The translations under genes and the position numbers were made by a program. From assembly GCA_028698525.1 (NCBI GenBank), contig JAQVDB010000021.1:1-34355 (forward strand): DNA of 34,355 bases. Reading direction: 5' to 3'. Positions 1,974-27,272 of this stretch are shown here, in pieces. Each line of letters opens with the position of its first letter. The stretch's first letter is position 1. This DNA comes from Clostridia bacterium. Lineage in GTDB: Bacteria; Bacillota; Clostridia; JAQVDB01. Under the pieces are notes generated by a model. It did not search any database and was not told where the DNA came from. It saw only the letters and a list, made by a program, of their open reading frames with translations.

Positions 1974-2006
1974 GCAAAAAAAAGAAGTAGACGATATAGT
2001 CTACTT
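1974..2006 (-). terminator. Rho-independent terminator after the module A operon
   Basis: Perfect 8-bp stem AAGTAGAC/GTCTACTT (1985-1992 with 1999-2006), 6-nt loop, then on the minus strand C followed by eight or more Ts. It lies 26 nt after the stop of the heptad-repeat protein gene. Confidence 0.85.
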
Positions 2007-2031: not shown

Positions 2032-4158
2032 TTATTTATGTGATTTAAATAAATCTTTAAACCATTGTATAAATCCTTTCTTTTCACTTTTCTCGTGATT
2101 ACGATGATTTTGTACCTCTTTCTCCTGTTTTTTTATCTCCTCAGTCCTCATAACAAACTTTACTTTTCCTTCCATACCATCCCCAAGCTTTGTATATATA
2201 TTATATGAATCAGAATATTCTTTGAGCTTATCTTTGACTTCCTTTAATTCATCCAATCCATCAATCTTTTTTTCTACTTCATCTTTGAGCTCCAGTACGC
2301 CTTCCTGATAAAACCTTTTCATGTTTTCATCCAGCTCTTTCATACCGTCACTTATCTTTATTGCTCCATCTTCAAGTTGTGTAGTAGAACCGGCTAATTT
2401 TTTGTTCCCGGCGCTGTATTGGTCAGCCCCTTTTCTTAATGCAGAAGTACCCGTGCTCAATCCATCCAATCCCTCTGCCAATTGATCAGATGCCATAGAT
2501 AGTTGTCTTGCCCCTTCTACAAACTTAGATGAGCCTTGATTCAACTCATATGCACCACCGCTTATAGTTTCCGGTGCTCCAGCCATTTTTTGATACCCTG
2601 CCTTTAATTTAGATGCACCTGTTTTTAAACCTTTAGCACCTTCATCCATTTTATGCAGTTCTGGCATAGCGGATTGTATCCCTTTATCCAATTGGTCTAA
2701 ACCACCATAGAGTTGTTTCTGACCTATGTGAAGCTGTCCTAACCCATTGCCTACTCCTGTAGAGGCCATTTCTAGCCCTTCCATATTTGAAATTATTTGC
2801 CCAATTCCGGAAACATCCATCCCCGCTGATTCCATCTGTAATTTCATCGATTCAAGTGCTTTTATTGTAGAGGATATACCTGCCGTCACCTGGGATTGTG
2901 TAGCTCTTAGCTGTCCTGCTTCGCTAGTTTGTTCTTTGAGTTCTCCTGCTCCCTGCTTTAGAGCACCAATGCTATCCACCATTCCGCCAGGTGCTGTTAA
3001 ACTGCTTGAAAAATCAGTTACACCATTAGCAAATTCCGTAGCTCCTTTTGAAAAATCACCTGCACCTTGTACAAAATCACCTGCACCATTTGCAAACTTT
3101 TGAACACCATCCGATAAACCATCCACGCCTTTGCCTAATTTTGAGGCATTATCAGCTAAAATCTTGCCACCCTTAGAAATTTTCCTTGCACCATCACCGG
3201 CCTGTCCGGAACCGGTATCTATTTTTCCTATTCCAGCCTTTAATTCATCAAAAGCTGAATCCAACTTTCCAACACCATTTCCAAAATCCATTATACCGTC
3301 AACAAGTTGACCTTGCCCATCTGCCAGTTGACCTGTCCCATCTGCCAGTTTACCGGTTGCATCCTCCATTTGATCTATTCCATCGGTTAATTTATCAGTA
3401 TTATCTCCCAATTCATCCAGATCCTCCGCATCGGGAATCTCTGATGCGATTGTCACCAGTATAGGGTCAAGTTCAAAATCCTGAGTTTCTGCCTTTATCT
3501 CCAATTGATCCGGAAGATCTAATATATCATCATATTCACCCAAGCTTTCCTTTAATCCCGGGAATGCTATATATGTTATTATCTGGTTGTTTGCTTCTGA
3601 CACCATTCCGCCTGTATTTATCTGTATATTAGAAAACTTATCTACTGGAAGATTGACGACTGCAACAGCAGCAAATGGGGTATATAATCTTCTGTTCTCT
3701 CCATCTATGATGGTATTATGTGATAAATTGTTTTTGAATTTTAATGTAATATCCACATCCCCTGATTTACCTGCCAAATCTTTAGGACTGGTTATCCTTC
3801 CATCTAACTTGTATGTTATCTCTACATCTACCGGAAGAGGTTTGTCTGATTTTCCCTGGTAGAATATATCGCTGTTTTGGGATTCCCACTTCAAAATATC
3901 CCCGTCTATAATTGGCTGCTCCTCGCCTTTTATATTTTTTATATCCTTTAAATCGGATCGATCTTTTACATTTATCCCTTGGCCATCGGAATAAAGCCAG
4001 TCACTTACTATTATTTGTTCAACTTTACCTTCATTATTTAAATTTACATATACTGTTTCATCCTTAGTTACTTTTTCGGCTGCAAAAGCCATATTTGTAA
4101 AACAAAACGTTATAAGCAGTGTTATGCTTAATGTCTTTAGCATCTTTTTTGTGTTCAT
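2032..4158 (-). CDS. Secreted heptad-repeat (xxxLxxG) protein, partner of MMPL pump A
   Basis: 708 residues. Residues 1-26 are a signal peptide ending AFA. Residues 34-240 form an N-terminal domain (ETVYVNLN, KNIKGEE, FYQGKSDKPLP, DLAGKSGD) shared with the paralogue at 22727-24445. Residues about 250-620 are two long runs of xxxLxxG heptads (for example KLADGTGQLADGQGQLVDG) separated by a break near 385-465 rich in coiled-coil residues, so an antiparallel hairpin is plausible. The C-terminus (KKGFIQWFKDLFK) is amphipathic, and there is no second membrane segment. This heptad motif is known from YhgE/Pip and EsaA-type envelope proteins. It starts 2 nt after the MMPL stop, so the two are surely co-translated. 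The function is unknown; a role as an extracytoplasmic partner of the pump is inferred from linkage only. Confidence 0.85.
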   Translation of the reverse strand: MNTKKMLKTLSITLLITFCFTNMAFAAEKVTKDETVYVNLNNEGKVEQIIVSDWLYSDGQGINVKDRSDLKDIKNIKGEEQPIIDGDILKWESQNSDIFYQGKSDKPLPVDVEITYKLDGRITSPKDLAGKSGDVDITLKFKNNLSHNTIIDGENRRLYTPFAAVAVVNLPVDKFSNIQINTGGMVSEANNQIITYIAFPGLKESLGEYDDILDLPDQLEIKAETQDFELDPILVTIASEIPDAEDLDELGDNTDKLTDGIDQMEDATGKLADGTGQLADGQGQLVDGIMDFGNGVGKLDSAFDELKAGIGKIDTGSGQAGDGARKISKGGKILADNASKLGKGVDGLSDGVQKFANGAGDFVQGAGDFSKGATEFANGVTDFSSSLTAPGGMVDSIGALKQGAGELKEQTSEAGQLRATQSQVTAGISSTIKALESMKLQMESAGMDVSGIGQIISNMEGLEMASTGVGNGLGQLHIGQKQLYGGLDQLDKGIQSAMPELHKMDEGAKGLKTGASKLKAGYQKMAGAPETISGGAYELNQGSSKFVEGARQLSMASDQLAEGLDGLSTGTSALRKGADQYSAGNKKLAGSTTQLEDGAIKISDGMKELDENMKRFYQEGVLELKDEVEKKIDGLDELKEVKDKLKEYSDSYNIYTKLGDGMEGKVKFVMRTEEIKKQEKEVQNHRNHEKSEKKGFIQWFKDLFKSHK

Positions 4159-4160
4159 TA

Positions 4161-6260
4161 TCAGTTCTCCTCTCTTTCTAAAGCAGTCAATGATGCTTTA
4201 TTTCTCCAATACCTGCTGGTAACAGATATAAAGCTCTCTGTAGCTATCAGCACAGCAGGTAACAGCAATAATATTACAACCATACTTATTATAGCTCCCC
4301 TTGCTATCATGGTAGTCAAGCTGCTTGTTATTTCTATATCAGCAACAATTCCAACGCCTATCGTTGCCGCAAAAAATGTTAATCCACTTGTAACTATAGA
4401 TTTAGCAGAATTTTTAAGGGTTATATACATGGCTTCGCCCTTTTTAAATCCATTTCTAATCTCTTCCCTAAACCTGGTAGTAAGCAATATAGCATAATCA
4501 ACCGTTGCACCCAATTGTATACATCCTATAACTATGGATGAAATAAAGGGTATTGAAGTATTTGTGTAATAGGGTATTCCCATATTTATAAAAATTGCAA
4601 GCTCTATAGCGCTAACCAACATGATAGGTATAGATATTGAACCAAACAATAACATTATTATTACAAATATAGCTACTATAGAGGCTATATTTACGTTCCT
4701 AAAATCTATATCACAGACCTCAATCAAATCCTTGGTAAGGGCTCCTACCCCGGCTATAACATTTTCCTCATCATATGATTTTATTATATTATCCATATCC
4801 TCCAGCTGTTTGTTCAACTCATCGGAGGCAGCCTTATATTTTGAGTTTACTAACATAAGCTTATATCCATCGTTTTCAAACATATTCACAAATTTTTGAG
4901 GTATAAAACTTTTAGGAATACCGCTTCCAATATACTTATCATAGGATACCGCCTTTGTTATACCATCAAGCTGTTCTATCCTTTTTATCATTTGATTTAC
5001 CTGATGAGAGGGGATGTCACCTTTGACGATCACCATATGGGTAGTCGTCATATTAAACTCTTCTTTCAGCTTATTCAAAGCCACCACCGACTGCATATCT
5101 TCAGGAAGGGACTTATCCAAATTATAATAAACTTCTGTGTTTGCCTGTCCGTATATAGCCGGAATGAATAATACTATAAATATTAAGAGTAATATCTTAT
5201 AATTGTCTGTTACAAATTTGGCCATTTTATCGAATTTAGGCAAAATAGTCCCGTGGTTATATTTATGAATTGGTCCATCAAAAACCAAAATCAGTGCCGG
5301 CAAAACAGTTACAGTACAGATAACCCCTAATAATACGCCTTTTGCCATAACAATACCTATATCGCCCCCTAGTCTTAACTGCATGATAACCAACACAGCA
5401 AAACCAGCTATAGTCGTAAGGGAGCTGCCGGATACTGAAGATGCAGACGCCGAAATTGCCTTAGCCATGGCCTCTACTCTGTCATCGGTATTTTTCTTTT
5501 CTTCATCATACCTGTGAAACAAAAATATCGAATAATCCATTGTAACTCCCAACTGCAAAACAGCTGCCAAAGATTTTGTTACGTAGGATATCTCTCCCAA
5601 AAACACGTTTGTACCAAAATTATACATAATAGCAATTCCTATGGATGCAAGAAAAATGAATGGAATAAGCGTGGATTCAAGAGTAAGAGCTAAAACAATA
5701 ATTGCTAATGCTACCGCCAAAGCTATGTATATGGGGGTCTCCTTATCTGCCAATGCTTTTGTGTCTTTGATTATTGAGGCAGCACCTGATAAAAAGCATT
5801 GCTTATCCATTATTTTCTCTATACCTTCTAGTGCATCCATAGTCTCTTTTGAAGCGGCTGGATACTCAAATTGTATAGTTACCAATGTAGAATTATCGCT
5901 GTAAAAAGTAGTCCTTATCTCTTCTGGCAGAAAATCTCCAGGTACCGATATATCTACAAAATCATCAATCCATGTAACACTTTCAACGCCTTCTACCTTT
6001 TCTATCTTCTCCTTGATAACCTGTACATCTTTATCTTCCATATCTTCTATAACTAGCATTCCAGTTGCAGCTTTAGAAAAAGTATTGTCCAACAACTCCT
6101 GACCTTTCATTGAATCCATATCTTCAGGCAGATATGTAAGCATATCATAATTGATACGCGTAATAGCCATCCCGTAAAATGAGGGGAAAAGCAGCAGTAT
6201 AGCAATTATCAAAACCAGTATCCTGTTCTTGGATACAAACTTCCCAAACTTGTACATCAT
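4161..6260 (-). CDS. MMPL/RND-superfamily transporter (module A)
   Basis: 699 residues with the duplicated MMPL plan: TM1 (about 12-30), an external loop, five membrane segments (about 176-330), TM7 (about 353-371), a second external loop and five more (about 525-680). The MmpL-type proton-relay Asp-Tyr pairs are present in both halves: D242-Y243 in QLGVTMDYSIFLFHR and D588-Y589 in QLGATVDYAILLTTRF. The family exports lipids or other amphiphiles using proton motive force. GGAAGG lies 9 nt before the first of two ATGs. It follows its TetR by about 107 nt without a visible terminator and is followed 2 nt later by the heptad-repeat protein. It is the closest relative in this window of the MMPL at 24459-26516. 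The substrate is unknown. Confidence 0.92.
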   Translation of the reverse strand: MMYKFGKFVSKNRILVLIIAILLLFPSFYGMAITRINYDMLTYLPEDMDSMKGQELLDNTFSKAATGMLVIEDMEDKDVQVIKEKIEKVEGVESVTWIDDFVDISVPGDFLPEEIRTTFYSDNSTLVTIQFEYPAASKETMDALEGIEKIMDKQCFLSGAASIIKDTKALADKETPIYIALAVALAIIVLALTLESTLIPFIFLASIGIAIMYNFGTNVFLGEISYVTKSLAAVLQLGVTMDYSIFLFHRYDEEKKNTDDRVEAMAKAISASASSVSGSSLTTIAGFAVLVIMQLRLGGDIGIVMAKGVLLGVICTVTVLPALILVFDGPIHKYNHGTILPKFDKMAKFVTDNYKILLLIFIVLFIPAIYGQANTEVYYNLDKSLPEDMQSVVALNKLKEEFNMTTTHMVIVKGDIPSHQVNQMIKRIEQLDGITKAVSYDKYIGSGIPKSFIPQKFVNMFENDGYKLMLVNSKYKAASDELNKQLEDMDNIIKSYDEENVIAGVGALTKDLIEVCDIDFRNVNIASIVAIFVIIMLLFGSISIPIMLVSAIELAIFINMGIPYYTNTSIPFISSIVIGCIQLGATVDYAILLTTRFREEIRNGFKKGEAMYITLKNSAKSIVTSGLTFFAATIGVGIVADIEITSSLTTMIARGAIISMVVILLLLPAVLIATESFISVTSRYWRNKASLTALEREEN

Positions 6261-6367
6261 GCAATCATTCCTTCCGTCATGTCACTTTAGGTTTATTGAA
6301 TCTATCTGTATTAGTTATATCTATTTGGAAGCAGATAGTAGGTACTTTTGCTTTTGAGAACATCACC

Positions 6368-6979
6368 TTAGGGGTTTTGGTCAATTGTGCTCTTGATTAT
6401 TTTAAACAAAATAGGTTTCATCTCATCCATCTTAAATGGCTGTTCCAGCACTATGGCACTATAACACACTGAACCTATCATATCCACAATAATAAAAAGG
6501 ACTTTCTTGGCATCTTCTATATCATAGCCCTTGCTGACCAAACCATTTATAAATTCATCAACAATATTGCTTATCTCAAGATAATTGTGCTGATCCTTTA
6601 AGGCTTTAGTAAACATCCCATACGATAAATCCTTATGAATTATCTTCAGCAAAATCTTGTTTTTCTTCAAATATTCTATTATGAAGTTGGTAAAATAAAT
6701 TACCCTGTCTTCAAAATTAGAATGCTCCTCACTATGCGCCGCCTTGCTGGCTTCAACTATAACTTCTGTGCTCTTTTTCAAGATAATTAGATCAAGGATA
6801 TCGTACTTGTCATTAAAATAAAGATAAAAGGTCCCTTTGGCTACACCTGCATTATTTACAATATCGCTTATAGTAGTGTTATTGATGCCCTTAGTTGTAA
6901 ATAAATTGTACGCTGCTTCAAAAATTGCATTTCTTTTAAATCTTTTGTTCTCAAGCACCTTGCTGTTCTTCTCTTCCAC
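6368..6979 (-). CDS. TetR/AcrR-family regulator of module A
   Basis: 203 residues from a GTG at 6979 with AGAGGTGA about 6 nt upstream. The N-terminal helix-turn-helix is clear: TTISDIVNNAGVAKGTFYLYF, then NDKYDILDLI. Residues about 70-200 are the all-helical ligand and dimer domain, which has no recognisable specificity. It is the first gene of the TetR-MMPL-heptad operon and its own promoter is framed by two dyad operators, so autorepression released by a ligand (probably the pump substrate) is the natural reading. This is inference from architecture. Confidence 0.92.
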   Translation of the reverse strand: MEEKNSKVLENKRFKRNAIFEAAYNLFTTKGINNTTISDIVNNAGVAKGTFYLYFNDKYDILDLIILKKSTEVIVEASKAAHSEEHSNFEDRVIYFTNFIIEYLKKNKILLKIIHKDLSYGMFTKALKDQHNYLEISNIVDEFINGLVSKGYDIEDAKKVLFIIVDMIGSVCYSAIVLEQPFKMDEMKPILFKIIKSTIDQNP

Positions 6980-7002: not shown

Positions 7003-7016
7003 TTGACCAATAGTCA
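7003..7016 (-). promoter_or_regulatory. TetR-type operator O1 of module A
   Basis: Dyad TGAC-CAATA-GTCA (7004-7016), downstream of the predicted transcription start. With O2 it fits TGACYAWTRGTCA. The two dyad centres are 46 bp apart and flank the promoter. Confidence 0.65.
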
Positions 7017-7034: not shown

Positions 7035-7063
7035 ATTATATAACTAAAATGACCATTAGTCAA
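7035..7063 (-). promoter_or_regulatory. Consensus promoter of the module A operon
   Basis: Minus-strand TTGACT (7058-7063), 17-nt spacer, perfect TATAAT (7035-7040). The predicted start is near 7028, about 50 nt before the GTG. The -35 hexamer is part of operator O2, so a bound TetR would block polymerase. Confidence 0.8.
7049..7063 (-). promoter_or_regulatory. TetR-type operator O2 of module A
   Basis: Dyad TGAC-CATTA-GTCA (7050-7062), overlapping the -35 of the module A promoter. It lies about 50 bp upstream of the candidate -10 of the divergent aminotransferase, which could therefore also be affected. Confidence 0.65.
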
Positions 7064-8063: not shown

Positions 8064-8098
8064 AAAATATGCACCAGATTTAATCTGGTGCATATTTT
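8064..8098. terminator. Bidirectional terminator between convergent genes
   Basis: Perfect 16-bp stem (8064-8079 with 8083-8098), 3-nt loop, core GCACCAGAT/ATCTGGTGC, with A/T-rich outer ends that give U tracts in both directions. It sits between the aminotransferase stop and the stop codon of the minus-strand TetR, which it slightly overlaps. Confidence 0.9.
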
Positions 8099-8693
8099 AT
8101 ATGCTTATACCGTATTTTATAAGTTCTATCAACTGCTTTTTCTCTTTCTCTATCTTTATCTCATCATCTTGTGCTAAACTTCTCATGCTATATGCTATAA
8201 TCATATTAACAAATATATCGGCAGTAAATTCCTTGTCTATATCCTTTACCTTGTCTTCCTTCTGTCCCATGCGAAATATATCTATAATAATGCTTATCAA
8301 TTGCTTTCTATATTGGGAAATGATGGACGACAGTCGTTCCTTTGTTTCACTCTTTAAATAAATACCTTCATTCCTCAATCTCATGATATGAGCAATTTTC
8401 ATATTTTTATCTATCAACTTTGAATTAATATTTACAAAAGCATCTATCTTGCCTTCAAAATCTGATTTTATTCCTATTTCGCTTTCTATAAGATCAAAAC
8501 ATTTAGCAAAATTACATTTCACCACTTCTACAAAAAGTTCTTCTTTACTTTTAAAATATTCGTATATAGTGCCTTTTCCTACTTCAGCAGTCTCTGCTAT
8601 ATCGGATATACTTGCATTATAAAAGCCCTTTTTGCTGAAAGTTTTAGTTGCAGCATTTAATATGATTAATCTTTTACCTTTGTCTTTTGTCAC
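8097..8693 (-). CDS. TetR/AcrR-family regulator of RND pump module B
   Basis: 198 residues from a GTG at 8693; a TTG one codon earlier is also possible, and AGAGGGGG serves either. Helix-turn-helix: ASISDIAETAEVGKGTIYEYF followed by KSKEELFVEVV, a typical AcrR-like recognition helix. The rest is a helical effector domain. It is the last gene of the adaptor-pump-TetR operon, starting 14 nt after the pump stop, so it is made with the pump it probably represses through the dyads at 13194-13220. The drug or lipid sensed is unknown. Confidence 0.92.
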   Translation of the reverse strand: MTKDKGKRLIILNAATKTFSKKGFYNASISDIAETAEVGKGTIYEYFKSKEELFVEVVKCNFAKCFDLIESEIGIKSDFEGKIDAFVNINSKLIDKNMKIAHIMRLRNEGIYLKSETKERLSSIISQYRKQLISIIIDIFRMGQKEDKVKDIDKEFTADIFVNMIIAYSMRSLAQDDEIKIEKEKKQLIELIKYGISI

Positions 8694-8707
8694 CAAATTT
8701 TCCCCCT

Positions 8708-11700
8708 CTATTTACCTGTCTTAAACTTGATTGCTATATCATCAAATAAAGTATATATAACAGGAACTATTATAAGAGTCAATACTGTAGACAGTATGAG
8801 ACCTCCTATAATGCTGATGGCTAATGGTCTCTCCAGTTCAGCCCCTTCTCCTATCCCCAATGCAAGGGGAAGCAACCCCAGCACTGTGGTAAGGGTGGTC
8901 ATCAATATAGGTCTTAATCTGGCAGGCCCGGCTTCCAATATGGCAGCAGTTCTGTCATTTCCTGCTTCTCTCAGCTGGTTGATATAATCGACTAAAACTA
9001 TTCCGTTGTTCACCACTATCCCTGCCAAAACAATCATACCTAGCAAACCTGGTACACTCAACGCCTGACCTGTCAAAAAAAGCGCTAAAAAAGCACCGGT
9101 TAAAGCCAAAGGAACTGAGAACATTATTGTAAAAGGATAAACCAGGGATTCAAACTGGGAGGCCATTATCATATATACCAATATTATCCCCAACAAAAGT
9201 GCCTTGCTCAAATCTTCAAAGGCTTGCTGGAGCTGCTCACTCTCGCCCCCTACATATAAGCTGTACCCTTCAGGTAATCTATAACTTTCCAATTGTTCTT
9301 CAATATCTTTAACAACACTCCCTAAATCCCTCTGTTTGATAGAAACTGAAACCTTTACAACCCTAGTCTGACCCTCTCGTTGTATTTGAATAGGTCCTTT
9401 TTCGCCATATATATCTGCAATATTTTTTAGCGGTACAGTCATACCTAGGGGTGATTGTACAGGCAAATTTTCTATATCATTTAAATCGAGATGATCTTTG
9501 TTTTCAACCTGCACTCTCACATCCATTTCTCTGCCACCTGTTTTATATCTAGTTGCTACATTTCCCTGTAAAAATCCCTGAACAGTGGAAGATACCAACG
9601 CAACATTTATTCCGTATTGTGAGGCCCTTTCTCGGTCCAGCACTATTCTAAATTCTGGACTCCCCTCTTCAAAACCACTCTCTACTTCTGCTACTCCTTC
9701 AACCTTCCTTGCTATATCTGCCACATCAAATGATATGTCTCTCAAAATATCAAGATTGTCTCCTTCTATAGCTATCGAAATAGGTGCACCCGAAATCCCG
9801 CCGGTAGCATTGGCCATCATTGAACCACCTGCATCCACCTTTACCTCCGCCCCAGGGATTTGAGCAACTTTTCCCCTTATTTCTTGAGCAATATCCTGGG
9901 TACTTCGATTTCTATCTTTAATAGGCTTTAGATTTACAGTTATACTACCGTTATCTCCGGCTGAAGGCGTATAGCCTGCAAACATTTCATTTCCTCCTAC
10001 ACTGCTGGCTACAATATCTGCCTCAGGTATGGAATATACTACATCCTCTATCTCTTTCACGGTATTTACAGTCTCATCATATTTTGTTCCCTTGGGCATA
10101 TTGACAGTAATACTAATCTGCCCTTGATCTACAGTTGGAAAAAATTCCGACCCAATGAAAAATGCAGAGAGCAAAGATGCCACAAAAACTCCCATAGCTA
10201 TGAAAACTACGGCTGCCCTATGTTGTATAGACCAATTTAATAAGTTATGATATTTCTGGTTTATATATTCTAAAACCCTATTTTTCCTCTCCTGAGAATT
10301 TTTGTTGGTAAGAAGCTTTGAAGAAAGCATGGGAACAAGGGTTAAAGCTACAACTAAAGATGTAATCAAAGAAAAGGTCACAGTCAATGCCATCTGCTTG
10401 AATATCTCTGCCGTTATACCCTGAACAAAAACTATTGGTATAAAAACACTTATAGTTGTAAGGGTAGAAGCAGTAATAGCCATGGCCACTTGACTGCTTC
10501 CTTCTTTAGCAGCATCCATCATTCCAAATCCTTCCTGCCTCATCCTATATATGTTTTCCAAAACAACAATAGAATTATCTACCAACATGCCTACACCCAG
10601 AGCAAGTCCCCCAAGGGATATAATATTCAAAGTTGTTTCAGAATAATATAGCAAAATAAAAGTACCTATAACTGATATAGGTATAGACGTAGCGATGATC
10701 AATGTAGGTGCAATATCTTTCAAAAACACCAATAGAATCAGTATAGCAAACAGACCGCCTATCAATGCACTCTTTGCAACAGAAGAGATAGAAAGATTGA
10801 TAAACTCTGCTTGGTCCAGCACAGTTGTGATGTTAACGTTGCTATACTCTTGAATTATCTTTTCTATCTCCTGGTTAACCTTTTCAGATACTTTAACAGT
10901 ATTAGCATCGCTCTCCTTCTGTATAAAGACGCTTATGCTATCCTCTCCATCTATCTTTGAATAAGCAACCTTCTGTTTGTCTGCATACTTTACTTGACAT
11001 AAATCTTTGAGCAAAAACTTAGTGCCACTTTGCGTGACCACAGGCAAATTTTCTATATCTTCTAGGCTCTCAAACTCTCCAGTTGTCCTGACTAAAAGGT
11101 CATACTGCCCTTCGGTAATCATTCCTCCGGGAGCATTTATGTTTTCCATACGGATGGCATTTACAACCTGCTCAAGGGATATATTGTTAGCAGATAACCT
11201 ATCAGGATCTACAATAACTTTTACCTCTTTTTCTGTACCACCTGCTAAACTGATGGAAGCCACACCATCCAATCTTTCGATACGAGGTTTTAATACATCC
11301 TCTACCCAAAGCCTAGTAGTATTCATATCCTCTCCAGTCTTTGATACACCAAAAGATATAATTGGAAGCATATTTGGATCTAATTTTAAAACTATAGGTG
11401 AACTTATACCCTCGGGAAGCATCCCCTCTATTAAATCTAATTTTTCCCTCATCTCAAGGGTGGCGAAATCCATATCAGTTCCATTATTGAATTCAAGTAT
11501 TACTATAGAATTCCCTTCCGATGATATGGAATTGATTTTCTTTACATTGCTCACAGTGGCCATAGTATTTTCTATATTCTTGGTTACAATCTCTTCTACC
11601 TCTTTAGGCCCTGCACCGTTATAACCTGTAGATACTGCAGCAACAGGAATATTTATATTAGGAAGTAAATCAACATTTAATCTCGTAAGCGAAACAACAC

Positions 11701-11773
11701 CCAAAAGAATTATTATCAACATTATCATAGTGATAGTAACCGGGCGCTTTATACTGAATTCTGATAGCTTCAC
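8708..11773 (-). CDS. RND efflux pump permease, AcrB/SwrC (HAE1) type
   Basis: 1021 residues, the usual RND size. TM1 is at about 11-30, the first large porter loop at 31-335, a cluster of membrane segments at about 335-480, TM7 near 515-540, the second porter loop to about 850 and the last membrane cluster to 1010. The TM4 proton-relay motif reads GVGMLVDNSIVVLENI: D399 is kept while the second Asp of AcrB is Asn. TM10 has GIVVNNGIVLVDY, without the AcrB lysine. Both are common in Gram-positive RND pumps. The GTG start shares one base with the adaptor TAG stop, and GGGGTG lies 7 nt upstream within the adaptor gene. No outer-membrane channel gene is near, consistent with a monoderm SwrC-like exporter of drugs or lipopeptides. 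Confidence 0.95.
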   Translation of the reverse strand: MKLSEFSIKRPVTITMIMLIIILLGVVSLTRLNVDLLPNINIPVAAVSTGYNGAGPKEVEEIVTKNIENTMATVSNVKKINSISSEGNSIVILEFNNGTDMDFATLEMREKLDLIEGMLPEGISSPIVLKLDPNMLPIISFGVSKTGEDMNTTRLWVEDVLKPRIERLDGVASISLAGGTEKEVKVIVDPDRLSANNISLEQVVNAIRMENINAPGGMITEGQYDLLVRTTGEFESLEDIENLPVVTQSGTKFLLKDLCQVKYADKQKVAYSKIDGEDSISVFIQKESDANTVKVSEKVNQEIEKIIQEYSNVNITTVLDQAEFINLSISSVAKSALIGGLFAILILLVFLKDIAPTLIIATSIPISVIGTFILLYYSETTLNIISLGGLALGVGMLVDNSIVVLENIYRMRQEGFGMMDAAKEGSSQVAMAITASTLTTISVFIPIVFVQGITAEIFKQMALTVTFSLITSLVVALTLVPMLSSKLLTNKNSQERKNRVLEYINQKYHNLLNWSIQHRAAVVFIAMGVFVASLLSAFFIGSEFFPTVDQGQISITVNMPKGTKYDETVNTVKEIEDVVYSIPEADIVASSVGGNEMFAGYTPSAGDNGSITVNLKPIKDRNRSTQDIAQEIRGKVAQIPGAEVKVDAGGSMMANATGGISGAPISIAIEGDNLDILRDISFDVADIARKVEGVAEVESGFEEGSPEFRIVLDRERASQYGINVALVSSTVQGFLQGNVATRYKTGGREMDVRVQVENKDHLDLNDIENLPVQSPLGMTVPLKNIADIYGEKGPIQIQREGQTRVVKVSVSIKQRDLGSVVKDIEEQLESYRLPEGYSLYVGGESEQLQQAFEDLSKALLLGIILVYMIMASQFESLVYPFTIMFSVPLALTGAFLALFLTGQALSVPGLLGMIVLAGIVVNNGIVLVDYINQLREAGNDRTAAILEAGPARLRPILMTTLTTVLGLLPLALGIGEGAELERPLAISIIGGLILSTVLTLIIVPVIYTLFDDIAIKFKTGK

Positions 11774-13176
11774 TAGTCTTCACCCCGGACAATTTTAATT
11801 TTAGCACCGTCACTCAAAAAATCTTTACCCTTAGTAATAACTTTTTCTCCCCCATTTAAGCCTGATAAAATTTCTACATATTCTTGATCTTGTATTCCGA
11901 TTTCCACCTGCACCTTCTTGGCTCTATCACCATCTATAATAAATACAAATGAATTTCCTGCTTGATCTAATATACTCTTTTTAGGAACTGCTATACAATC
12001 CTTTTTCTCATCAACTTTGATACTGGTCTTTGCAAACATACCGGATTTAATAATTCCATCTGGATTGTCTATTTTTATACAGGCAGGATAAGACTGAGTC
12101 TTAATATCCAAAGTAGGACTTATATAATCTATCACACCTGATACACTTGAATCATCCAATGCCTCAATGACAACATCAACCTTTTGCCCCTCTTCTACCT
12201 TGTTTACCTCGAATTCAGTCAAGTTTACATCCAAAGTAACTTCACTGGCATCTACTACAGTTGCAGGAGGCATATTTTGAACTGCCATCTCCCCTTTTTC
12301 CACTGTCAGGCTGGCTACTATCCCATCTATCGGCGATTTAAGCTTTAAATTATCTCCTGCACTTTCGGCCATATCCACCCCTATCTTTGCCTGTTCCAAT
12401 TGGGCATCAAAGGCTTTCTGCTGTATAGGAGTCAGCTTCAGCTTTGATTCTAATTCTATCTTTGCTCCTTCAAGTTCTGCTTTTTTGCTCAATAACTGCT
12501 GTCTCCCATTAACCATTCCCGATAAATTAATAGCATTTCCTGCCGCCATTCCCCCAGATATATCCCCTAGATATTGCTTATACTCATCTGGTACGTTATT
12601 TTGTATGTATTTAGTCAACTCTTGCTGAAATTGCTGTTGGGTTATCTCGCCTTTCTGCAATTGTTGTGATAATTTAGATAGCTGGCTAGAAACCTTTTCG
12701 GTCACTTGATCCATCTTTTTTATCTGACTGTCTATTTCACCGATAGCTTTATCAAGGTTATTCTTTTGCGCTGCCAATTCATCCAATTGTTTTTTGGATA
12801 GCTGGATATTTGCACTAGCAGCGTCATAAGCAGCTTGGGCCTGTTTTATCTGCATATCTACGTCGCTGCCCTCCAACTCTATCAGCACCTCACCTTCTTT
12901 TACTGCCTGACCTACTTTTACATTGACCTTCTTTACCGGACCGGGAATCTTGGGCACAACCATTATCTCCTTACCGGCCTCCAACTTACCGGACAGCTCT
13001 TTGGCTACTTGTATATCTTTCAGCTGTACCTCTTCTATTTCAACAGAAACAGCATCTGTTCCGCCTTCTTCCTGCCCTTCATCACCCTGTTTTTTGATAC
13101 CGCATGATGTCAATACAAAAATCAGCATACAAAAAACAACAATGATGAGTATGCTATTTCTTATCCACCTTTTCAC
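11773..13176 (-). CDS. RND adaptor (membrane-fusion) lipoprotein
   Basis: 467 residues from a GTG at 13176 with AAAGGAGG 10 nt upstream. Residues 1-24 form a lipoprotein signal with lipobox LTSC, so the mature protein is anchored outside the membrane by C25. A biotinyl-lipoyl-like half motif (IMVVPKIPGPVKKVNVKVG) precedes a long alpha-helical hairpin (about residues 110-295, rich in Gln, Lys and Leu), then the second lipoyl half (LKSPIDGIVASLTVEKGE), beta-barrel and membrane-proximal domains (IAVPKKSIL, GGEKVITKG). The hairpin is longer than in AcrA. It is the first gene of the operon and overlaps the pump gene by one base. The adaptor is needed for energy-coupled export by RND pumps. Confidence 0.93.
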   Translation of the reverse strand: MKRWIRNSILIIVVFCMLIFVLTSCGIKKQGDEGQEEGGTDAVSVEIEEVQLKDIQVAKELSGKLEAGKEIMVVPKIPGPVKKVNVKVGQAVKEGEVLIELEGSDVDMQIKQAQAAYDAASANIQLSKKQLDELAAQKNNLDKAIGEIDSQIKKMDQVTEKVSSQLSKLSQQLQKGEITQQQFQQELTKYIQNNVPDEYKQYLGDISGGMAAGNAINLSGMVNGRQQLLSKKAELEGAKIELESKLKLTPIQQKAFDAQLEQAKIGVDMAESAGDNLKLKSPIDGIVASLTVEKGEMAVQNMPPATVVDASEVTLDVNLTEFEVNKVEEGQKVDVVIEALDDSSVSGVIDYISPTLDIKTQSYPACIKIDNPDGIIKSGMFAKTSIKVDEKKDCIAVPKKSILDQAGNSFVFIIDGDRAKKVQVEIGIQDQEYVEILSGLNGGEKVITKGKDFLSDGAKIKIVRGED

Positions 13177-19622: not shown

Positions 19623-20872
19623 AATTCATCCTCCAAAACCATTCGAGAGGCTATCTCATAATCCAATCCTTTCATCAGTTGCCGTAAATATTCTATCACC
19701 GAGTCATCATCGGTACTTGGACATCCTCCCAGATCATCTGGCTTTAACTTCAGCAACAGACTGTGATCAGATTCTGCATCTTTCAATAAATCAAGGACTG
19801 TGCCCAACAGATGAGGCTGTCCAATGAACTGGCTGACATCTATTGAGGGAGTCAGTCTATCCACTAAAAATTCCACATATTGTGCATCGGTAAACAGCTT
19901 CACATAATCACACAGGCTCTCTAGATTGTCCCTGTCCTTCAATTCCTCATGTAAGCTACAGGGTCCTTCAAGATTTATCCTTAAAAATAAATGTTGGGCA
20001 CTGTCATACATATCGACTACATCCTGCAGTGAATCCCGTATATGATTTTCCAGCTGACTCAAGGTTTCTATCTTTTCCAAATCATCTATAGTCACTACCT
20101 CCCATAATACCGGAGAAAGTGGATGAAAATCCGTGTGCACCATCCTGTTATCATCTATATCCACCAAATATGCCCCTTTCCAACCTCTTTCCACCGGGTT
20201 TCTGCCTGATATGTTGCCCGGATATATTATAAACGGGTTGCGGGAAATCTCCAGTCGGGTATGAACATGCCCTAACGCCCAATAATCGTAACCTTTTTCC
20301 ATCATATCACTTATGGAACAAGGGGCATACCTCTCATGTTGATCTGAACTTTTCTGACCTGTGACCAGAACATGTGCAATCCCAACATGGGGTATATCTT
20401 GTGAATCACGATCAGGAAATCTCTTTATTAAATTTTGAAATTCTTTTTTATGGGAATGCCCCACCCCTGTCACCAGACCGATGACTTTTCCACTTTTATC
20501 TTTAATCTGATGAGTGACGGGCATATCATCATCGAATATTATGATATTGGAAGGCCACTGAATATTTCTCATCTTATAACTTTGACCATAAGGATCATGA
20601 TTCCCGGGAGAATAGAATGTTATAATATTTTCATCCTTCAATTTGTCTAACTGGTCGAGCAAAAATTTTTCTGTAGCAAAACTCAATGTATTGTTATCGA
20701 ACAGGTCCCCTGATATCAGAACCGCATCTACCTCTTGTTGTACCGCTAGCTCAATTCCTGCAGCAAATGCATTCTTTATAGAATCTTTTAATAGTTTTCC
20801 AGTGTTTTTATCACTGCTATAAAACGGAGTATCCAGGTGAATATCTGCCATATGTACGAATTTTAACCCCAT
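19619..20872 (-). CDS. yhaO: YhaO-like metallophosphoesterase (SbcD/Mre11-type nuclease)
   Basis: 417 residues from an ATG with AGAGGGG 7 nt upstream. All calcineurin-type metal motifs are present: ADIHLD (D10, H12), SGDLFD (D56), GNHD (90-93), the histidine in IAHVLV (about 167) and GHVHT (201-204). The C-terminal 200 residues form the capping and partner-binding region. This family makes double-strand-break nucleases that work with the ATPase encoded next. It overlaps the YhaN-like gene by 4 bases. A candidate -10 (20899-20904) lies just upstream; the preceding gene ends at its own terminator, so this is an independent two-gene operon. Confidence 0.92.
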   Translation of the reverse strand: MGLKFVHMADIHLDTPFYSSDKNTGKLLKDSIKNAFAAGIELAVQQEVDAVLISGDLFDNNTLSFATEKFLLDQLDKLKDENIITFYSPGNHDPYGQSYKMRNIQWPSNIIIFDDDMPVTHQIKDKSGKVIGLVTGVGHSHKKEFQNLIKRFPDRDSQDIPHVGIAHVLVTGQKSSDQHERYAPCSISDMMEKGYDYWALGHVHTRLEISRNPFIIYPGNISGRNPVERGWKGAYLVDIDDNRMVHTDFHPLSPVLWEVVTIDDLEKIETLSQLENHIRDSLQDVVDMYDSAQHLFLRINLEGPCSLHEELKDRDNLESLCDYVKLFTDAQYVEFLVDRLTPSIDVSQFIGQPHLLGTVLDLLKDAESDHSLLLKLKPDDLGGCPSTDDDSVIEYLRQLMKGLDYEIASRMVLEDEL

Positions 20873-22702: not shown

Positions 22703-22727
22703 AAAAAAGACCTTTTAGGTCTTTTTT
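22703..22727 (-). terminator. Rho-independent terminator of module C
   Basis: Compact hairpin with core GACCT/AGGTC flanked by A and T runs (22703-22713 with 22717-22727, 3-nt loop), giving six Us on the minus-strand RNA. It directly abuts the stop codon of the heptad-repeat protein gene. Confidence 0.85.
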
Positions 22728-24445
22728 TAAAACTTGAACAGATCTTTTACCCTTTCCCAGAATCCTTTTTTTACTTCTTCATTCTGTGGTATCTTTTCTT
22801 GTTCATCTCTTTCTATTGGAGGGGTCCTTAATACAAATCTTACCGTTGAATTTTGTTTGTTCCTGGCATCCACAAATGAAGTATAATCCACAGATTTATC
22901 CTGATTTAAAAATTCTTCAAACTTTTTTATTCCTTGGTCATTTATCTGATCTAATCCCTCTTGTACATCCTTTTGACCGGCGACAGCCTTACTCATATTG
23001 TCAGTTATGCTATCCATGCCGTTGTACAGCTCTTGTGCCCCTTGGGCTGATTCATTTATTGCGGAATGAACATCCTGCCAGCCATTTTCCACATCTTGGG
23101 CTCCTTGTTCTAATTGTTCTATGCCCTGTATTAGTTTTCGACCTTCAGCGCCTAAATTGCCCAGTCCGTCGGATATCTGCTCTATCCCTGCCGAGTACTG
23201 ATCAAATCCCTGTTCTAAAGCCCCGGTGTTTTCCGATATCTGTTTAGCACCCTGGGCAAAGTCTGCATACTTTCGGTTTATCTCCCCAATAGCATCCTTT
23301 TCAGCCATTATAGCTTGGAGCAGTTTTGCCTCCATGCTGTCTGAAGGATATGAACCTAATACCAGGGCAGCTAGTTGTACTATCTGTTCATGTGACGACT
23401 CAAAGGTTTTAAGTCCTGTCCCCATATCTTGGATACCTGACTCCAGCTTTTTTGCCCCTCCATTCAGCTGGGACAATCCATCGTTTATAGACTTTCCTTT
23501 TTGCAAAACCTCTCCTAGAGCACCGTTTAATTCATCGGCTCCCTTTATCAGTTGACTGCTTCCTCCTTTGATTGAGCCTATTCCCTGAGTCAAGCCCTCC
23601 AGCCCTTCACCTAATCCATGGGTATTTTTATACAGCGATGACAAGCCTGACGACAACTGGCCGGTACCTGTTCTGATATCCTTCATACCTTGGAGGAGTT
23701 TATCATCTCCATGGGATATTTGTCTAAGTCCATCTGCGATATCATCCATCCCGGACTGTAGGGAATCTATATCCTCATCAAAATTTCCCGGTATCGGCAT
23801 AGACCCGGGTGCCACCTGAAAGGTCATCTCCTCCAAGCAGATATCCTCCCCATCCATTTCTACGGATATTTCCGCATCAGGCTGAGGTACCAGAGCATAA
23901 TTTATATTCATCTGTTTACCTATCAGTATACTAGTAGTAGCATCTTTGGCATCTATATTTGAAAATCTACTCGTATCAAAGTTCATATTCAACATAACTA
24001 TTAAAGGATCATCTAATCGGGATTCCACCCTTATATCGATTCTTAATTTTCCATCTTTGCCTGCCAACTCATCAGCATCTAATCTCTTCCCATCAAGATA
24101 ATAATCTATATTGATATCAAAAGGAAGCCCTTTATCCAAGTTGCCTTGATAATATATCCCTTCTTTTTCAATGATATCAGCAGGCCATATTGTTTTTTCG
24201 CCTTCTATTTTAGGTTTTTCATAACCACCTATGTTTTTAATAGAGTTATAGTCACCATATTCAATATGTTCTGCTTGGTCAGACCAACCTTCCAGGTGCA
24301 CTACTACAGCTGTTTCGTCTGCACTCCCATCACTATTCAAATTTACATACACCGTTTCATTTCTATTTATCTGTGCAGAAGCTGCAGAACAAACAAACAA
24401 AAATACAATTAATATAGTTATCGCTATTAACGACTTTTTCTTCAT
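22727..24445 (-). CDS. Secreted heptad-repeat (xxxLxxG) protein, partner of MMPL pump C
   Basis: 572 residues. Signal peptide 1-24 ending ASA. The N-terminal domain (29-220) matches the module A protein at the same landmarks: ETVYVNLN, IKNIGGYEKP, IYYQGNLDKGLPFD and LAGKDGK. Residues about 226-510 are xxxLxxG heptads in two arms around a break at about 350-395. After the heptads both paralogues have a short strand-like stretch (STVRFVLRT here) and an amphipathic end (KKGFWERVKDLFK). It is shorter than its paralogue mainly through fewer heptads. It starts 13 nt after the MMPL stop. There is no C-terminal membrane segment, unlike YhgE/Pip or EsaA. Function unknown; the pump-partner role is inferred. 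Confidence 0.85.
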   Translation of the reverse strand: MKKKSLIAITILIVFLFVCSAASAQINRNETVYVNLNSDGSADETAVVVHLEGWSDQAEHIEYGDYNSIKNIGGYEKPKIEGEKTIWPADIIEKEGIYYQGNLDKGLPFDINIDYYLDGKRLDADELAGKDGKLRIDIRVESRLDDPLIVMLNMNFDTSRFSNIDAKDATTSILIGKQMNINYALVPQPDAEISVEMDGEDICLEEMTFQVAPGSMPIPGNFDEDIDSLQSGMDDIADGLRQISHGDDKLLQGMKDIRTGTGQLSSGLSSLYKNTHGLGEGLEGLTQGIGSIKGGSSQLIKGADELNGALGEVLQKGKSINDGLSQLNGGAKKLESGIQDMGTGLKTFESSHEQIVQLAALVLGSYPSDSMEAKLLQAIMAEKDAIGEINRKYADFAQGAKQISENTGALEQGFDQYSAGIEQISDGLGNLGAEGRKLIQGIEQLEQGAQDVENGWQDVHSAINESAQGAQELYNGMDSITDNMSKAVAGQKDVQEGLDQINDQGIKKFEEFLNQDKSVDYTSFVDARNKQNSTVRFVLRTPPIERDEQEKIPQNEEVKKGFWERVKDLFKF

Positions 24446-24458
24446 GGAAATCCTCCCA

Positions 24459-26516
24459 TCAATATGATTTTCTATGCCATCTATCCATCAGCGAGTGAGC
24501 ACCTATTAAAAGACCGGGCAAAAGTACGAATACCGTTCCCATACTTATGAGAGCTCCACGGGCTATCAAAAGTGTAAGCTCACCGGTAGTCTTGATGGCT
24601 GTTACAAAATATATAGTTATAGTGGATGCAAACAGGGTCAACGCACTGGTTAACAACGAGGCACCACAATCAGAATAAGTCTTTTGCATAGCCATCAACT
24701 TATCTGAATTCTCCAAAGCATTTTCTTTAAACCTGGATGTGAACAATATAGCGTAGTCAACAGAAGCTCCTAACTGGATAGCCCCTATGATTATATATGA
24801 TACGAAAAACAGGGGGGCACCCATAAAATATGGGATGCTCAAGTTTATCCATATTGCAAACTCTATTACAAATATCAGCAGTATGGGAATTATTATGGAT
24901 TTAAAAGTAAAAACCAATATTATCCCTATGAATAATATGGATAACATATTTACTTTTTTAAAATCACTCCGTGTGATTTGGGCTAAATCCTTGTATACTG
25001 GCGCCTCTCCTGCTACATATATTTCATCAAAATATCCTTCTGCATCCTTTTTTATTTGAGATATAGTGTCTTTAGTAAGCTCTTGCTCCGGCCGGGATAC
25101 CAAAGTTACAGTAAAATAAGTAAAACCGTTCTCCGAAATAAAATTCTGTTTTAACTGACCAGGCAGGAACATCTCAGGTATATTGCCGTCCGCTAATGAA
25201 TACATACTGCTTACCATACTCACATTGGGGTATTGTTCTATCAAACCTATAAATTCCTGCTCTTTTACTTTATCTTGATGTGGTACTAATAAATAAAGAT
25301 CAGTCCCTTTTTGAAAAGTGTCTTCAATCAATTTTGTGGATTTTGCGGAAATAGAAGTATCATGCATGGTGGCAGACGCTGAATATTTGAAATCCAGTTT
25401 TGTCTGAGCCATGAATATAGGGAGCGCTATTATTATAGCCAAAATCAAAGTCAGATATCTATGTCTGATAAAAACATTTGCCAAACCTTTAAAATCCGGA
25501 ATAAAAACCTTGTGTTTATATCTTTCTGTGATTTTATCAAATAAAAGCACAAGACAGGGAAGCAATATTATTATGCAAACTACGCTCAACAACACACCTT
25601 TTGCCATGACAAATCCCATATCCTTGCCTATACCGTAATTCATAAAAGTCAACGCTATAAAACCAGCCACTGTAGTAAGAGCACTGGAGAATATAGATGT
25701 AAATGACCTTTTTATCGCCTCTACCATAGCATCTTCAGAATTTTTAAACCTTTCTTTTTCCTGATGATAGCGATGGATCAAAAAAATCGAATAATCCATG
25801 GATACCCCTAACTGCAATAATGGGGCTGCCGCATGAGTCATATAGGATATCTCGCCCATAAAAATATTGCTTCCCATATTGAGAGCAATGGCCGCCCCTA
25901 TAGATACCAACAGCAATATAGACTCTATGTATGAGCTGACAGACATAGAAATAATAAACAATATTATCACCAGCGCTATCCCTGTATACATAGGCATTTC
26001 TCTATTAGCTGTATTCTGAGTATCTATGGCATAGGCAGCCTCTCCGCCTATATAATACTCGCCGTCTATTATTTTTTTAATCTGTTCAATGGCTTGGTTT
26101 GTTTTTTGGTGTGCATTCCCCTCAGCAAATTTTATAATTAAAAGGTTATCTTGCCCTTTATTAAACTGCTCCTTTATATCATCGGGCATAAAGAATTCCG
26201 GTTGATACACATCGATAACATCATCCAGCCAAGCAACCTTACTCACACCTTCAATCTTTTCTATATTATTTTTTATATCTAAAATTTCATTTATTTTCTT
26301 TTCTCTTATCATTATCATGGCAGAACCTTTGATATCAAATTCACGGCTGAATATTTGATTTGCAATATATGAATCCATATCGGGAGGAAGATACCCGCCC
26401 ATATCATATTTTATAGATACATTTTTAAGGAAAAAAAGAGAGATTATTGTCAAAATTATAAATAAAACTGTAACAATCTTTTTGTTTTTTACTATAAAAT
26501 GCGCAAACTTATCCAT
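24459..26516 (-). CDS. MMPL/RND-superfamily transporter (module C)
   Basis: 685 residues with the same duplicated plan as the module A pump: TM1 at about 13-31, loop, five segments to about 327, TM7 at about 354-370, loop, five segments to the end. Both Asp-Tyr relay pairs are intact: D241-Y242 in QLGVSMDYSIFLIHR and D588-Y589 in QLGASVDYAILFTSRF. AGGGGTG lies about 10 nt before the ATG. It is the first gene of a two-gene operon with the heptad-repeat protein and is divergent from a TetR gene, whereas in module A the TetR is the leading gene of the operon. The substrate is unknown; lipids or amphiphilic molecules are typical for the family. Confidence 0.92.
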   Translation of the reverse strand: MDKFAHFIVKNKKIVTVLFIILTIISLFFLKNVSIKYDMGGYLPPDMDSYIANQIFSREFDIKGSAMIMIREKKINEILDIKNNIEKIEGVSKVAWLDDVIDVYQPEFFMPDDIKEQFNKGQDNLLIIKFAEGNAHQKTNQAIEQIKKIIDGEYYIGGEAAYAIDTQNTANREMPMYTGIALVIILFIISMSVSSYIESILLLVSIGAAIALNMGSNIFMGEISYMTHAAAPLLQLGVSMDYSIFLIHRYHQEKERFKNSEDAMVEAIKRSFTSIFSSALTTVAGFIALTFMNYGIGKDMGFVMAKGVLLSVVCIIILLPCLVLLFDKITERYKHKVFIPDFKGLANVFIRHRYLTLILAIIIALPIFMAQTKLDFKYSASATMHDTSISAKSTKLIEDTFQKGTDLYLLVPHQDKVKEQEFIGLIEQYPNVSMVSSMYSLADGNIPEMFLPGQLKQNFISENGFTYFTVTLVSRPEQELTKDTISQIKKDAEGYFDEIYVAGEAPVYKDLAQITRSDFKKVNMLSILFIGIILVFTFKSIIIPILLIFVIEFAIWINLSIPYFMGAPLFFVSYIIIGAIQLGASVDYAILFTSRFKENALENSDKLMAMQKTYSDCGASLLTSALTLFASTITIYFVTAIKTTGELTLLIARGALISMGTVFVLLPGLLIGAHSLMDRWHRKSY

Positions 26517-26570
26517 ACTATTAATGCACCCCTAAATAATAAAATAGCCACCAATCGTACATTTCAACTG

Positions 26571-26611
26571 ATCTATTCAAATAGTAATTTCAAACAAATG
26601 TTTTAATAGAT
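26571..26611. repeat. Inverted repeat in the MMPL-TetR intergenic region, possible operator
   Basis: ATCTATT (26571-26577) and AATAGAT (26605-26611) form a perfect 7-bp inverted repeat, and a smaller dyad CTATT-CA-AATAG overlaps the first arm. It lies in the transcribed leader of the MMPL gene. The DNA is AT-rich and arms this short can arise by chance, so an operator role is only a guess. Confidence 0.25.
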
Positions 26612-26614
26612 GTA

Positions 26615-26643
26615 TTGAAAGTATAATACCAAAGATATATAAT
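26615..26643 (+). promoter_or_regulatory. Promoter of the divergent TetR gene (module C)
   Basis: TTGAAA (26615-26620), 17-nt spacer, perfect TATAAT (26638-26643). The predicted start is near 26650, about 47 nt before the ATG. It occupies nearly the same DNA as the opposing MMPL promoter. Confidence 0.65.
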
Positions 26644-26651: not shown

Positions 26652-26696
26652 CGATATGTTTTAAAATCATATAAGTTAGAGGGAGATCTGATTTTA

Positions 26697-27272
26697 ATGG
26701 CTGATAACAAATCCACCAGGGAACAAATAATAGAAGCTGCACTTGAAATATTGAGCAAAAAGGCAAGTTTCCAACTGACCACACGTGAAGTAGTAGAAAA
26801 AGCTAATGTAAATATAGCTGCAGTCAATTATTATTTTGGTTCAAAGGACAACCTTATAGAGCAAGCTATAGAGTTTCTGCTTAAAAAACTATATGAAATA
26901 TTAAATGAGATGAAAGATGATTCAGTCCCGCCAAAAAAGAGGCTGTATAACTTTTCTTTCAAGTTTTTAGAGCTCACTGATAAATATCCGGGAATTGTAA
27001 AAAATATTGTGAGTACATTGATGTTTGAGGAAAACACATCCGAAAGCATCAAAAAGATGATACCGGAATTTACATCCATAGTATCAGACGTTATAAGACA
27101 GCTTTCTCCAAAAGATAGAAAATATCCGGTGGAATATCATACCTCCCAATTCATAGTAAATCTAGTTTTCCCCCAGCTTTTTTATAATTCGTATCCTACA
27201 CTTTTTAACGATTCAAATGCCAAAAATAAAATAAGGAATGAATATATATCATTCCTTTTGGATAATATTTGA
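26697..27272 (+). CDS. TetR/AcrR-family regulator of module C
   Basis: 191 residues from an ATG with AGAGGGAG about 11 nt upstream. Helix-turn-helix: QLTTREVVEKANVNIAAVNYYF, then GSKDNLIEQAI; the NIAAVNYYFGSK form is typical of one TetR branch and differs from the KGT-type recognition helices of the other two regulators here. The C-terminal effector domain is helical (residues about 75-190). It faces away from the MMPL and heptad-repeat genes and shares an overlapping promoter with them, which makes it the likely repressor. It ends 10 nt from the convergent YbaK-like gene. Confidence 0.92.
   Translation: MADNKSTREQIIEAALEILSKKASFQLTTREVVEKANVNIAAVNYYFGSKDNLIEQAIEFLLKKLYEILNEMKDDSVPPKKRLYNFSFKFLELTDKYPGIVKNIVSTLMFEENTSESIKKMIPEFTSIVSDVIRQLSPKDRKYPVEYHTSQFIVNLVFPQLFYNSYPTLFNDSNAKNKIRNEYISFLLDNI

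What the first reader, a model, noticed from the sequence alone, without database searches (positions are those of the whole stretch)
2032..6979. Module A: TetR, MMPL pump and secreted heptad-repeat protein as one tightly coupled unit
The MMPL gene and the xxxLxxG heptad-repeat gene are separated by 2 nt, share a TetR-controlled promoter and end at a strong terminator. The pump keeps both Asp-Tyr relay pairs (D242-Y243, D588-Y589). The partner has a signal peptide, an N-terminal domain, two heptad arms around a break (possible long antiparallel hairpin) and an amphipathic tail with no second membrane segment. Heptads of this type are known from YhgE/Pip and EsaA, which are integral membrane proteins; here the heptad part is a stand-alone exported protein. 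I infer a pump plus extracytoplasmic conduit or substrate chaperone, perhaps analogous to the coiled-coil extension of some mycobacterial MmpL proteins.
Basis: partly seen in the sequence, partly recalled or inferred. Interest (0 to 1): 0.7.

Follow-up and report, generated by a model that had tools for sequence, protein, structure and literature searches.

The report
MMPL pump with dedicated heptad-hairpin partner
A lipid-type membrane pump in a Clostridia bacterium is encoded with a secreted, probably hairpin-shaped partner protein, and the same gene pair recurs in well over a hundred related species, often under a conserved switch, so the partner is very likely a missing external part of this class of pump.

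Summary
On the minus strand lie tetR (6979-6368), a 699-aa MMPL pump (6260-4161) and a 708-aa exported xxxLxxG heptad protein (4158-2032), the last two 2 nt apart. Homologues of the heptad protein lie directly 3' of an MMPL gene in 34/34 relatives' loci, 78/78 usable named loci and 44/49 genes of a phylum sample. A second paralogous module (22727-27272) lies in the same window. A palindrome TGAC(C/T)NNN(G/A)GTCA flanks the tetR promoter. It recurs upstream of MMPL in 36/37 loci with a like TetR, against 2/67 others. AlphaFold gives a beta-domain, long paired helical arms and a returning C-terminal strand. Another MMPL branch carries xxxLxxG heptads inside its own second extracytoplasmic loop, where mycobacterial MmpL5 has its coiled coil. 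I conclude that this is a split MMPL exporter: pump plus dedicated membrane-tethered hairpin subunit. Whether the hairpin is a hollow conduit, a docking rod or a lipid carrier is open, and the substrate is only inferred (fatty acid or lipid). It belongs to neither the YhgE nor the EsaA family. Verdict: new variant of a known kind.

The parts
6368..6979 (-). tetR (203 aa, GTG start), probable autoregulated repressor of the unit; FadR/AcrR-like TetR
   Evidence: Pfam TetR_N 4.7e-14; best NCBIfam match Bacillus FadR model 48 bits, far below its 200-bit cut-off; paired operator motif
7004..7016 (.). operator-like palindrome 1, TGACCAATAGTCA, between promoter and tetR start
   Evidence: one of only two TGACN5GTCA in the 34-kb window (0.36 expected from base composition)
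7050..7062 (.). operator-like palindrome 2, TGACCATTAGTCA, overlapping the -35 box
7035..7063 (-). sigma-70-like promoter TTGACT-17-TATAAT of the tetR-mmpL-heptad unit
   Evidence: 11 of 12 matches
4161..6260 (-). MMPL/RND pump, 699 aa, 12 TM, short second loop (about 154 aa between TM7 and TM8), both Asp-Tyr pairs
   Evidence: PF03176 5.2e-65; TM positions; Asp-Tyr conservation; nearest solved structures MmpL4/5/3
2032..4158 (-). exported xxxLxxG heptad protein, 708 aa: signal peptide about 1-26, beta-domain 30-240, helical arms 254-444 and 450-651, C-strand 662-672, amphipathic tail 689-705
   Evidence: TIGR03057 4.9e-15; AF2 model, beta-domain pLDDT mostly 80-97, arms mostly 50-73; heptad register
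1985..2006 (-). terminator-like hairpin and T8 after the heptad gene
24459..26516 (-). module B MMPL pump, 685 aa, 36% identical to module A pump
22727..24445 (-). module B heptad partner, 572 aa, 30% identical; same predicted architecture (arms 222-363 and 371-513, strand 532-540)
26697..27272 (+). module B TetR, divergent from its pump
   Evidence: the nearest B-type module L047 has a like TetR, 5e-25

Best explanation
A TetR-switched, split MMPL (RND-type) exporter of an apparently monoderm bacterium. Shown: the MMPL gene and the heptad gene are an almost obligate, co-inherited, tightly spaced pair with a conserved operator-like site, and the pump keeps its proton-relay residues. Predicted: the partner is exported and stays at the outer face of the membrane (cleavable signal peptide plus amphipathic C-tail here; lipobox or C-terminal TM in other members). 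Its beta-domain carries a long antiparallel helical hairpin (about 140-200 residues per arm, roughly 20-28 nm if helical). Inferred: the beta-domain docks on the porter domains of the pump, and the hairpin extends into the cell wall as the separately encoded equivalent of the coiled coil that MmpL4/5 and the long actII-type MMPLs carry within loop 2, guiding a hydrophobic substrate (fatty acid or lipid) away from the membrane. The TetR senses that substrate or a related acyl compound.
For: Adjacency: 34/34 relatives' loci, 78/78 usable named loci, 44/49 genes in 398 phylum genomes; few MMPLs of this subfamily lack the partner. Distance matrices of pump and partner beta-domain correlate at r = 0.97 over 103 pairs, including the old A/B duplication. 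Operator-like site within 800 nt of MMPL in 36/37 loci with a like TetR versus 2/67 others, also where tetR lies downstream of the pair. Fusion evidence: xxxLxxG heptads in loop 2 of about 1050-aa MMPLs, above the shuffle maximum in 6 of 9 or more. AF2 models of two partners 30% identical agree. Tail and lipobox never occur together (0 of 24 tailed proteins). MmpL5 precedent: the PD2 coiled coil is predicted to form a tube and is needed for efflux (PMC12501195). FarE precedent: a TetR-controlled Firmicute efflux pump linked to fatty acid and phospholipid export (PMC8844917). Own genome shows neither TolC (PF02321) nor Omp85 (PF01103), so no outer-membrane channel was found.
Against: No interface was modelled or measured. 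Hairpin arms have pLDDT of only 50-73, and the predicted contacts between arms could not be inspected. Heptad arm lengths hardly co-vary across homologues (r = 0.24). Three genomes have a C-TM variant of the partner without MMPL (L181-L183), one genome has pump and partner on different contigs, and one further MMPL has no partner beside it. The FadR resemblance of the TetR is weak (48 bits versus a 200-bit cut-off). Adjacency and co-inheritance cannot by themselves separate subunit from chaperone.
Confidence: 0.6

Rival explanations
1. The partner is a membrane-tethered extracytoplasmic carrier or acceptor for the exported lipid, not a conduit: its beta-domain takes the substrate from the pump and the hairpin merely spaces it or binds the cell wall.
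For: beta-domain is the best conserved and best predicted part; heptad arms vary from about 30 to more than 300 residues among homologues, and proteins from 444 to 1319 aa, which a fixed-length conduit would not need; heptad register has one Leu/Gly/small stripe rather than two separate ones.
Against: heptads, apparently without the beta-domain, are fused into MMPL loop 2 in another branch; Foldseek finds only distant mu-homology-type beta-sandwiches, no lipid-binding fold.
Confidence: 0.2
2. The partner is an assembly factor that only stabilises or oligomerises the MMPL, as MmpS does for MmpL5.
For: MmpS (TM plus beta-sandwich) is required for MmpL5 trimerisation (PMC12501195); the partner likewise has an N-terminal segment and a beta-domain.
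Against: MmpS has no hairpin; no match to MmpS in Pfam or NCBIfam.
Confidence: 0.1
3. The partner is a client or a co-regulated surface protein (cell-wall rod, adhesion or phage-receptor-like) that merely shares the operon.
For: Pip/YueB-type proteins, which by family knowledge carry such heptads, are phage-adsorption proteins (PMC4999554); large length variation.
Against: near-obligate pairing in both directions, co-inheritance and the loop-2 fusion.
Confidence: 0.08

Closest known systems
Mycobacterial MmpS5-MmpL5 (and MmpL4)
   Same: MMPL pump with an extracytoplasmic coiled-coil hairpin and a beta-domain partner; best solved-structure relatives of the pump by sequence
   Different: there the coiled coil is inserted in pump domain PD2 and MmpS is small; here the pump has a short loop 2, and the hairpin and a different beta-domain form one separate protein
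S. aureus FarE/FarR
   Same: Firmicute efflux pump controlled by an adjacent TetR, linked to fatty acid and phospholipid export (PMC8844917)
   Different: no heptad partner is mentioned in the abstract read; FarE itself was not compared here
YhgE/Pip and EsaA/YueB proteins
   Same: xxxLxxG heptads in an extracytoplasmic region (family knowledge)
   Different: those are multi-TM membrane proteins; no match to their domains here, no C-terminal TM bundle
actII-type long MMPL transporters (about 1050 aa)
   Same: xxxLxxG heptads next to the MMPL porter
   Different: heptads are inside loop 2 of the pump; the partner's beta-domain was not detected in those examined
Thermus SbtR-type TetR operators
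   Same: TGAC...GTCA palindromes (PMC4948773)
   Different: SbtR site is 14 bp, here 13 bp with a 5-nt centre

Membership tests
MMPL / RND superfamily | MMPL domain (PF03176), two repeats, about 12 TM | tested here: met
   5.2e-65, two stretches; 12 TM segments
MMPL / RND superfamily | Asp-Tyr proton-relay pairs in TM4 and TM10 | tested here: met
   D242-Y243 and D588-Y589, 102-103 of 103
MmpL4/5 subgroup | coiled-coil insertion in PD2 (second loop) | tested here: not met
   loop 2 about 154 aa (TM7 ends 374, TM8 starts 528), no insertion
MmpS adaptors | match to MmpS family models | tested here: not met
   no Pfam or NCBIfam match
YhgE/Pip family | YhgE/Pip terminal domains and multi-TM C-terminus | tested here: not met
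   no such match for the module A or B partner; single N-terminal hydrophobic segment
EsaA/YueB (type VIIb secretion) | EsaA domain match, multi-TM topology | tested here: not met
   no match and no multi-TM C-terminus; no EsaA among listed structural matches. Whether T7SS genes lie elsewhere in the genome was not examined
xxxLxxG heptad repeat (TIGR03057) | repeat model above cut-off | tested here: met
   55 bits vs 18.6; 32 of 32 aligned members match
HlyD/MFP adaptors of RND pumps | barrel-sandwich/lipoyl domain | tested here: not met
   no Pfam match for the partner, while the nearby 11773-13176 protein does match
FadR-type TetR | NCBIfam FadR equivalog cut-off | tested here: not met
   48 bits vs 200
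MMPL-partner complex | physical interface with pump | not testable with these tools
   only single chains could be predicted

The most novel reading that the evidence does not exclude
Several partner hairpins assemble on the MMPL into a hollow helical tube that crosses the thick wall of a monoderm: a separately encoded Gram-positive counterpart of the MmpL5 coiled-coil tube, in effect a wall-crossing channel for lipids. The repeated pairing of MMPL with hairpin proteins (xxxLxxG here; GLUG plus coiled-coil proteins in other loci; in-loop coils elsewhere) would then be convergent solutions to one problem.
Probability: 0.25. Interest if true: 0.82.

Novelty: new variant of a known kind. Interest (0 to 1): 0.6.

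Why it matters
How MMPL pumps of thick-walled bacteria pass hydrophobic cargo beyond the membrane is open, and I know of no assigned partner for most Firmicute MMPLs. Here an unnamed beta-domain family (no Pfam entry matched) is tied to one MMPL subfamily in well over a hundred species of gut, rumen and environmental Clostridia. A predicted operator makes the unit easy to switch on and assay. If the subunit role holds, it explains at least one use of xxxLxxG heptads, a repeat that has long been catalogued without a mechanism.

Tried and rejected
Single-protein scan of genome contigs with full-length P0001 gave no relatives; a 20-row alignment was too diverse for the scan; an 8-row N-domain alignment worked. 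No PDB relative of the partner by sequence. YhgE/EsaA membership rejected. Arm-length covariation as a hairpin test: weak and inconclusive. Heptad register as a test of tube against rod: inconclusive (Leu at a, Gly at d, Ala/Val/Ile/Thr at e, polar at g). The diderm hypothesis (partner reaching an outer membrane) lacks support: no TolC or Omp85 in the genome. Plasmid search gave a single unannotated Subdoligranulum record. Literature searches combining MMPL with heptad, YhgE or accessory terms found no description of the pair; subscription papers are mostly not covered. Phyla other than Bacillota-type relatives were not sampled.

Full report
WHAT IS THERE. The window is G000:C21:1-34355 of a 2.18-Mb genome in 136 contigs, with its relatives in one class and the nearest named ones Clostridia. 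On its minus strand, tetR (6979-6368), an MMPL pump (6260-4161) and an exported heptad protein (4158-2032) follow one another; pump and partner are 2 nt apart, with the ribosome site of the partner inside the pump gene. The pump has 12 TM segments, both Asp-Tyr pairs and no insertion in loop 2. The partner has a signal peptide ending AFA|AE, no Pfam domain, and strong TIGR03057 heptads. The heptads exceed shuffles by far (25 against a mean of 1.8, maximum 7). They run in one unbroken register from 257 to 386 and in another from 469 to 605.

A SECOND COPY. The same window holds a paralogous module B: MMPL 24459-26516 (36% identical), partner 22727-24445 (30%) and a divergent TetR 26697-27272. 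The two partners are the only TIGR03057 proteins found in the genome. Conserved between them are the beta-domain motifs (ETVYVNL, YQG..DK.LP, LDG, LAGK.G), a C-terminal strand V.FV.RT..I and the tail KGF....KDLF.

THE REFUTATION TEST. With a profile of the beta-domain only, 34 loci in relatives were found and all 34 lie directly 3' of an MMPL gene on the same strand. A scan of 84,980 species genomes found 222 stretches encoding relatives, of which the best 80 were fetched (Oceanirhabdus, Butyrivibrio, Lachnospiraceae, Ruminococcus, Oscillospiraceae and others). In every one with enough contig (78) the MMPL is upstream, usually from -64 to +180 nt; one pump is frameshifted and one is cut by a contig end. 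In 398 phylum genomes, 44 of 49 partner genes are beside an MMPL (count made by matching the places, exceptions read). The exceptions: three C-TM variants beside a 5-TM protein, one fragment, and one genome with pump and partner on separate contigs. Conversely, among close MMPLs only two (G456, G389) have no partner beside them; the other unpaired ones are cut or partial. Pump and partner distances correlate at r = 0.97 over 103 pairs; much of this is shared species history, so it supports co-inheritance, not contact.

REGULATION. TGACN5GTCA occurs twice in the window, at 7004 and 7050, around an 11/12 promoter. Taking loci whose TetR resembles that of module A (E < 1e-20), 36 of 37 carry the palindrome within 800 nt upstream of MMPL (the printed count of 37 of 38 loci, 32 with two or more sites, has one further row, module B of the same window, without a site; window module A's own sites are at -750 and -796 because tetR lies between). 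Of 67 other loci, 2 do. Elsewhere in 489 kb of the same loci there are 9. The consensus is TGAC(C/T)(A/G)N(T/C)(G/A)GTCA. Where tetR lies downstream of the pair, the palindromes are still at the pump's promoter, which ties the regulator to the pair. The site resembles, but is one base shorter than, Thermus SbtR sites. The regulator scores weakly with FadR, so acyl sensing is only a lead.

SHAPE. AlphaFold2 with 32 aligned sequences (mean pLDDT 68) gives a confident beta-domain (30-240, pLDDT mostly 80-97), helices 254-444 and 450-651 of nearly equal span (pLDDT mostly 50-73, with smaller breaks), a confident returning strand 662-672 (about 86) and a tail helix 689-705. Module B gives helices 222-363 and 371-513 and a strand 532-540 (mean pLDDT 61.9). 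Equal arms around one break fit an antiparallel hairpin, but coordinates could not be inspected and the heptad arms of other homologues are often unequal. Foldseek places both beta-domains near mu-homology domains (TM-score by target about 0.4-0.47), a distant likeness of fold only. Module B's helices also match TolC weakly, which is best read as 'long helical hairpins'.

TETHERS. Twenty-four members have a 30- to 43-residue tail, most ending in an amphipathic helix, and none of them has a lipobox. Thirty-three have a lipobox-like sequence, and none of these has the tail. Three have a C-terminal TM. The split follows lineages, so it is suggestive, not proof, that each protein keeps one membrane attachment.

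FUSION EVIDENCE. Long actII-type MMPLs (about 1050 aa) of the same phylum have a second loop of 400-570 aa. In six of the nine tested (L193, L200, L203, L204, L206, L207) it holds more LxxGxxxLxxG-type and GxxxLxxG motifs than any of 1000 shuffles; the first L198 copy does so too (5 against a maximum of 4, and 8 against 5), L208 and the second L198 copy do not exceed it clearly. So the repeat that is a separate protein here sits within the pump elsewhere, at the site where MmpL5 carries the coiled coil that is needed for efflux (PMC12501195). A further MMPL type (804-861 aa; L188-L190) is followed by a large exported protein with GLUG motifs, coiled-coil-like stretches in at least one, and a C-terminal TM, apparently a third way to pair MMPL with a long external protein.

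MECHANISM. Shown: near-obligate pairing, conserved operator-like site, active-site residues, heptads. Predicted: hairpin on a beta-domain, outer-face tether. Inferred: docking on the porter, guidance of a hydrophobic substrate into the wall, lipid or fatty acid as substrate (by analogy with FarE, PMC8844917). Against a conduit: arm length varies greatly, and the heptad register shows one seam rather than the two faces of a barrel. I give the dedicated external subunit, as stated, 0.6, and a hollow tube 0.25.

NOVELTY. Searches found no paper on the pair; the library lacks many journals. Parts are known kinds (MMPL, TetR, xxxLxxG); the split architecture with an unnamed beta-domain is not described in what I could search: a new variant of a known kind.

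Noticed in passing
window 22727-27272: Second, paralogous TetR-MMPL-heptad module in the same contig, old duplication; its nearest relative (L047) has the same kind of TetR, so there is a separate B type.
   Followed up: yes
L188, L189, L190 (also L195): MMPL of 804-861 aa followed by an exported 1166-1256 aa protein with GLUG motifs and a C-terminal TM anchor; coiled-coil-like matches in L189. Looks like a different MMPL partner of analogous shape.
   Followed up: partly
L181, L182, L183: Variant of the heptad protein with a C-terminal TM, not near MMPL but directly after a 169-195 aa 5-TM protein (DUF1097-like in L182).
   Followed up: partly
L041, L049, L085, L141: A roughly 200-aa multi-TM protein directly upstream of the MMPL; DUF308/HdeD-like in L041 and L049, possible third component in one lineage.
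   Followed up: partly
window 8097-13176: AcrB-type RND permease, HlyD-type adaptor and TetR side by side in a genome where neither TolC nor Omp85 was found: a tripartite-type pump apparently without its outer-membrane channel.
   Followed up: partly
L194 5646-6945: Decayed module: MMPL N-terminal fragment (188 aa) runs into a heptad-containing fragment, as if an internal deletion removed the rest of both genes.
   Followed up: no
window 16956-20872: SbcC/Rad50-like and SbcD/Mre11-like pair, below the curated cut-offs of the named NCBIfam models.
   Followed up: no
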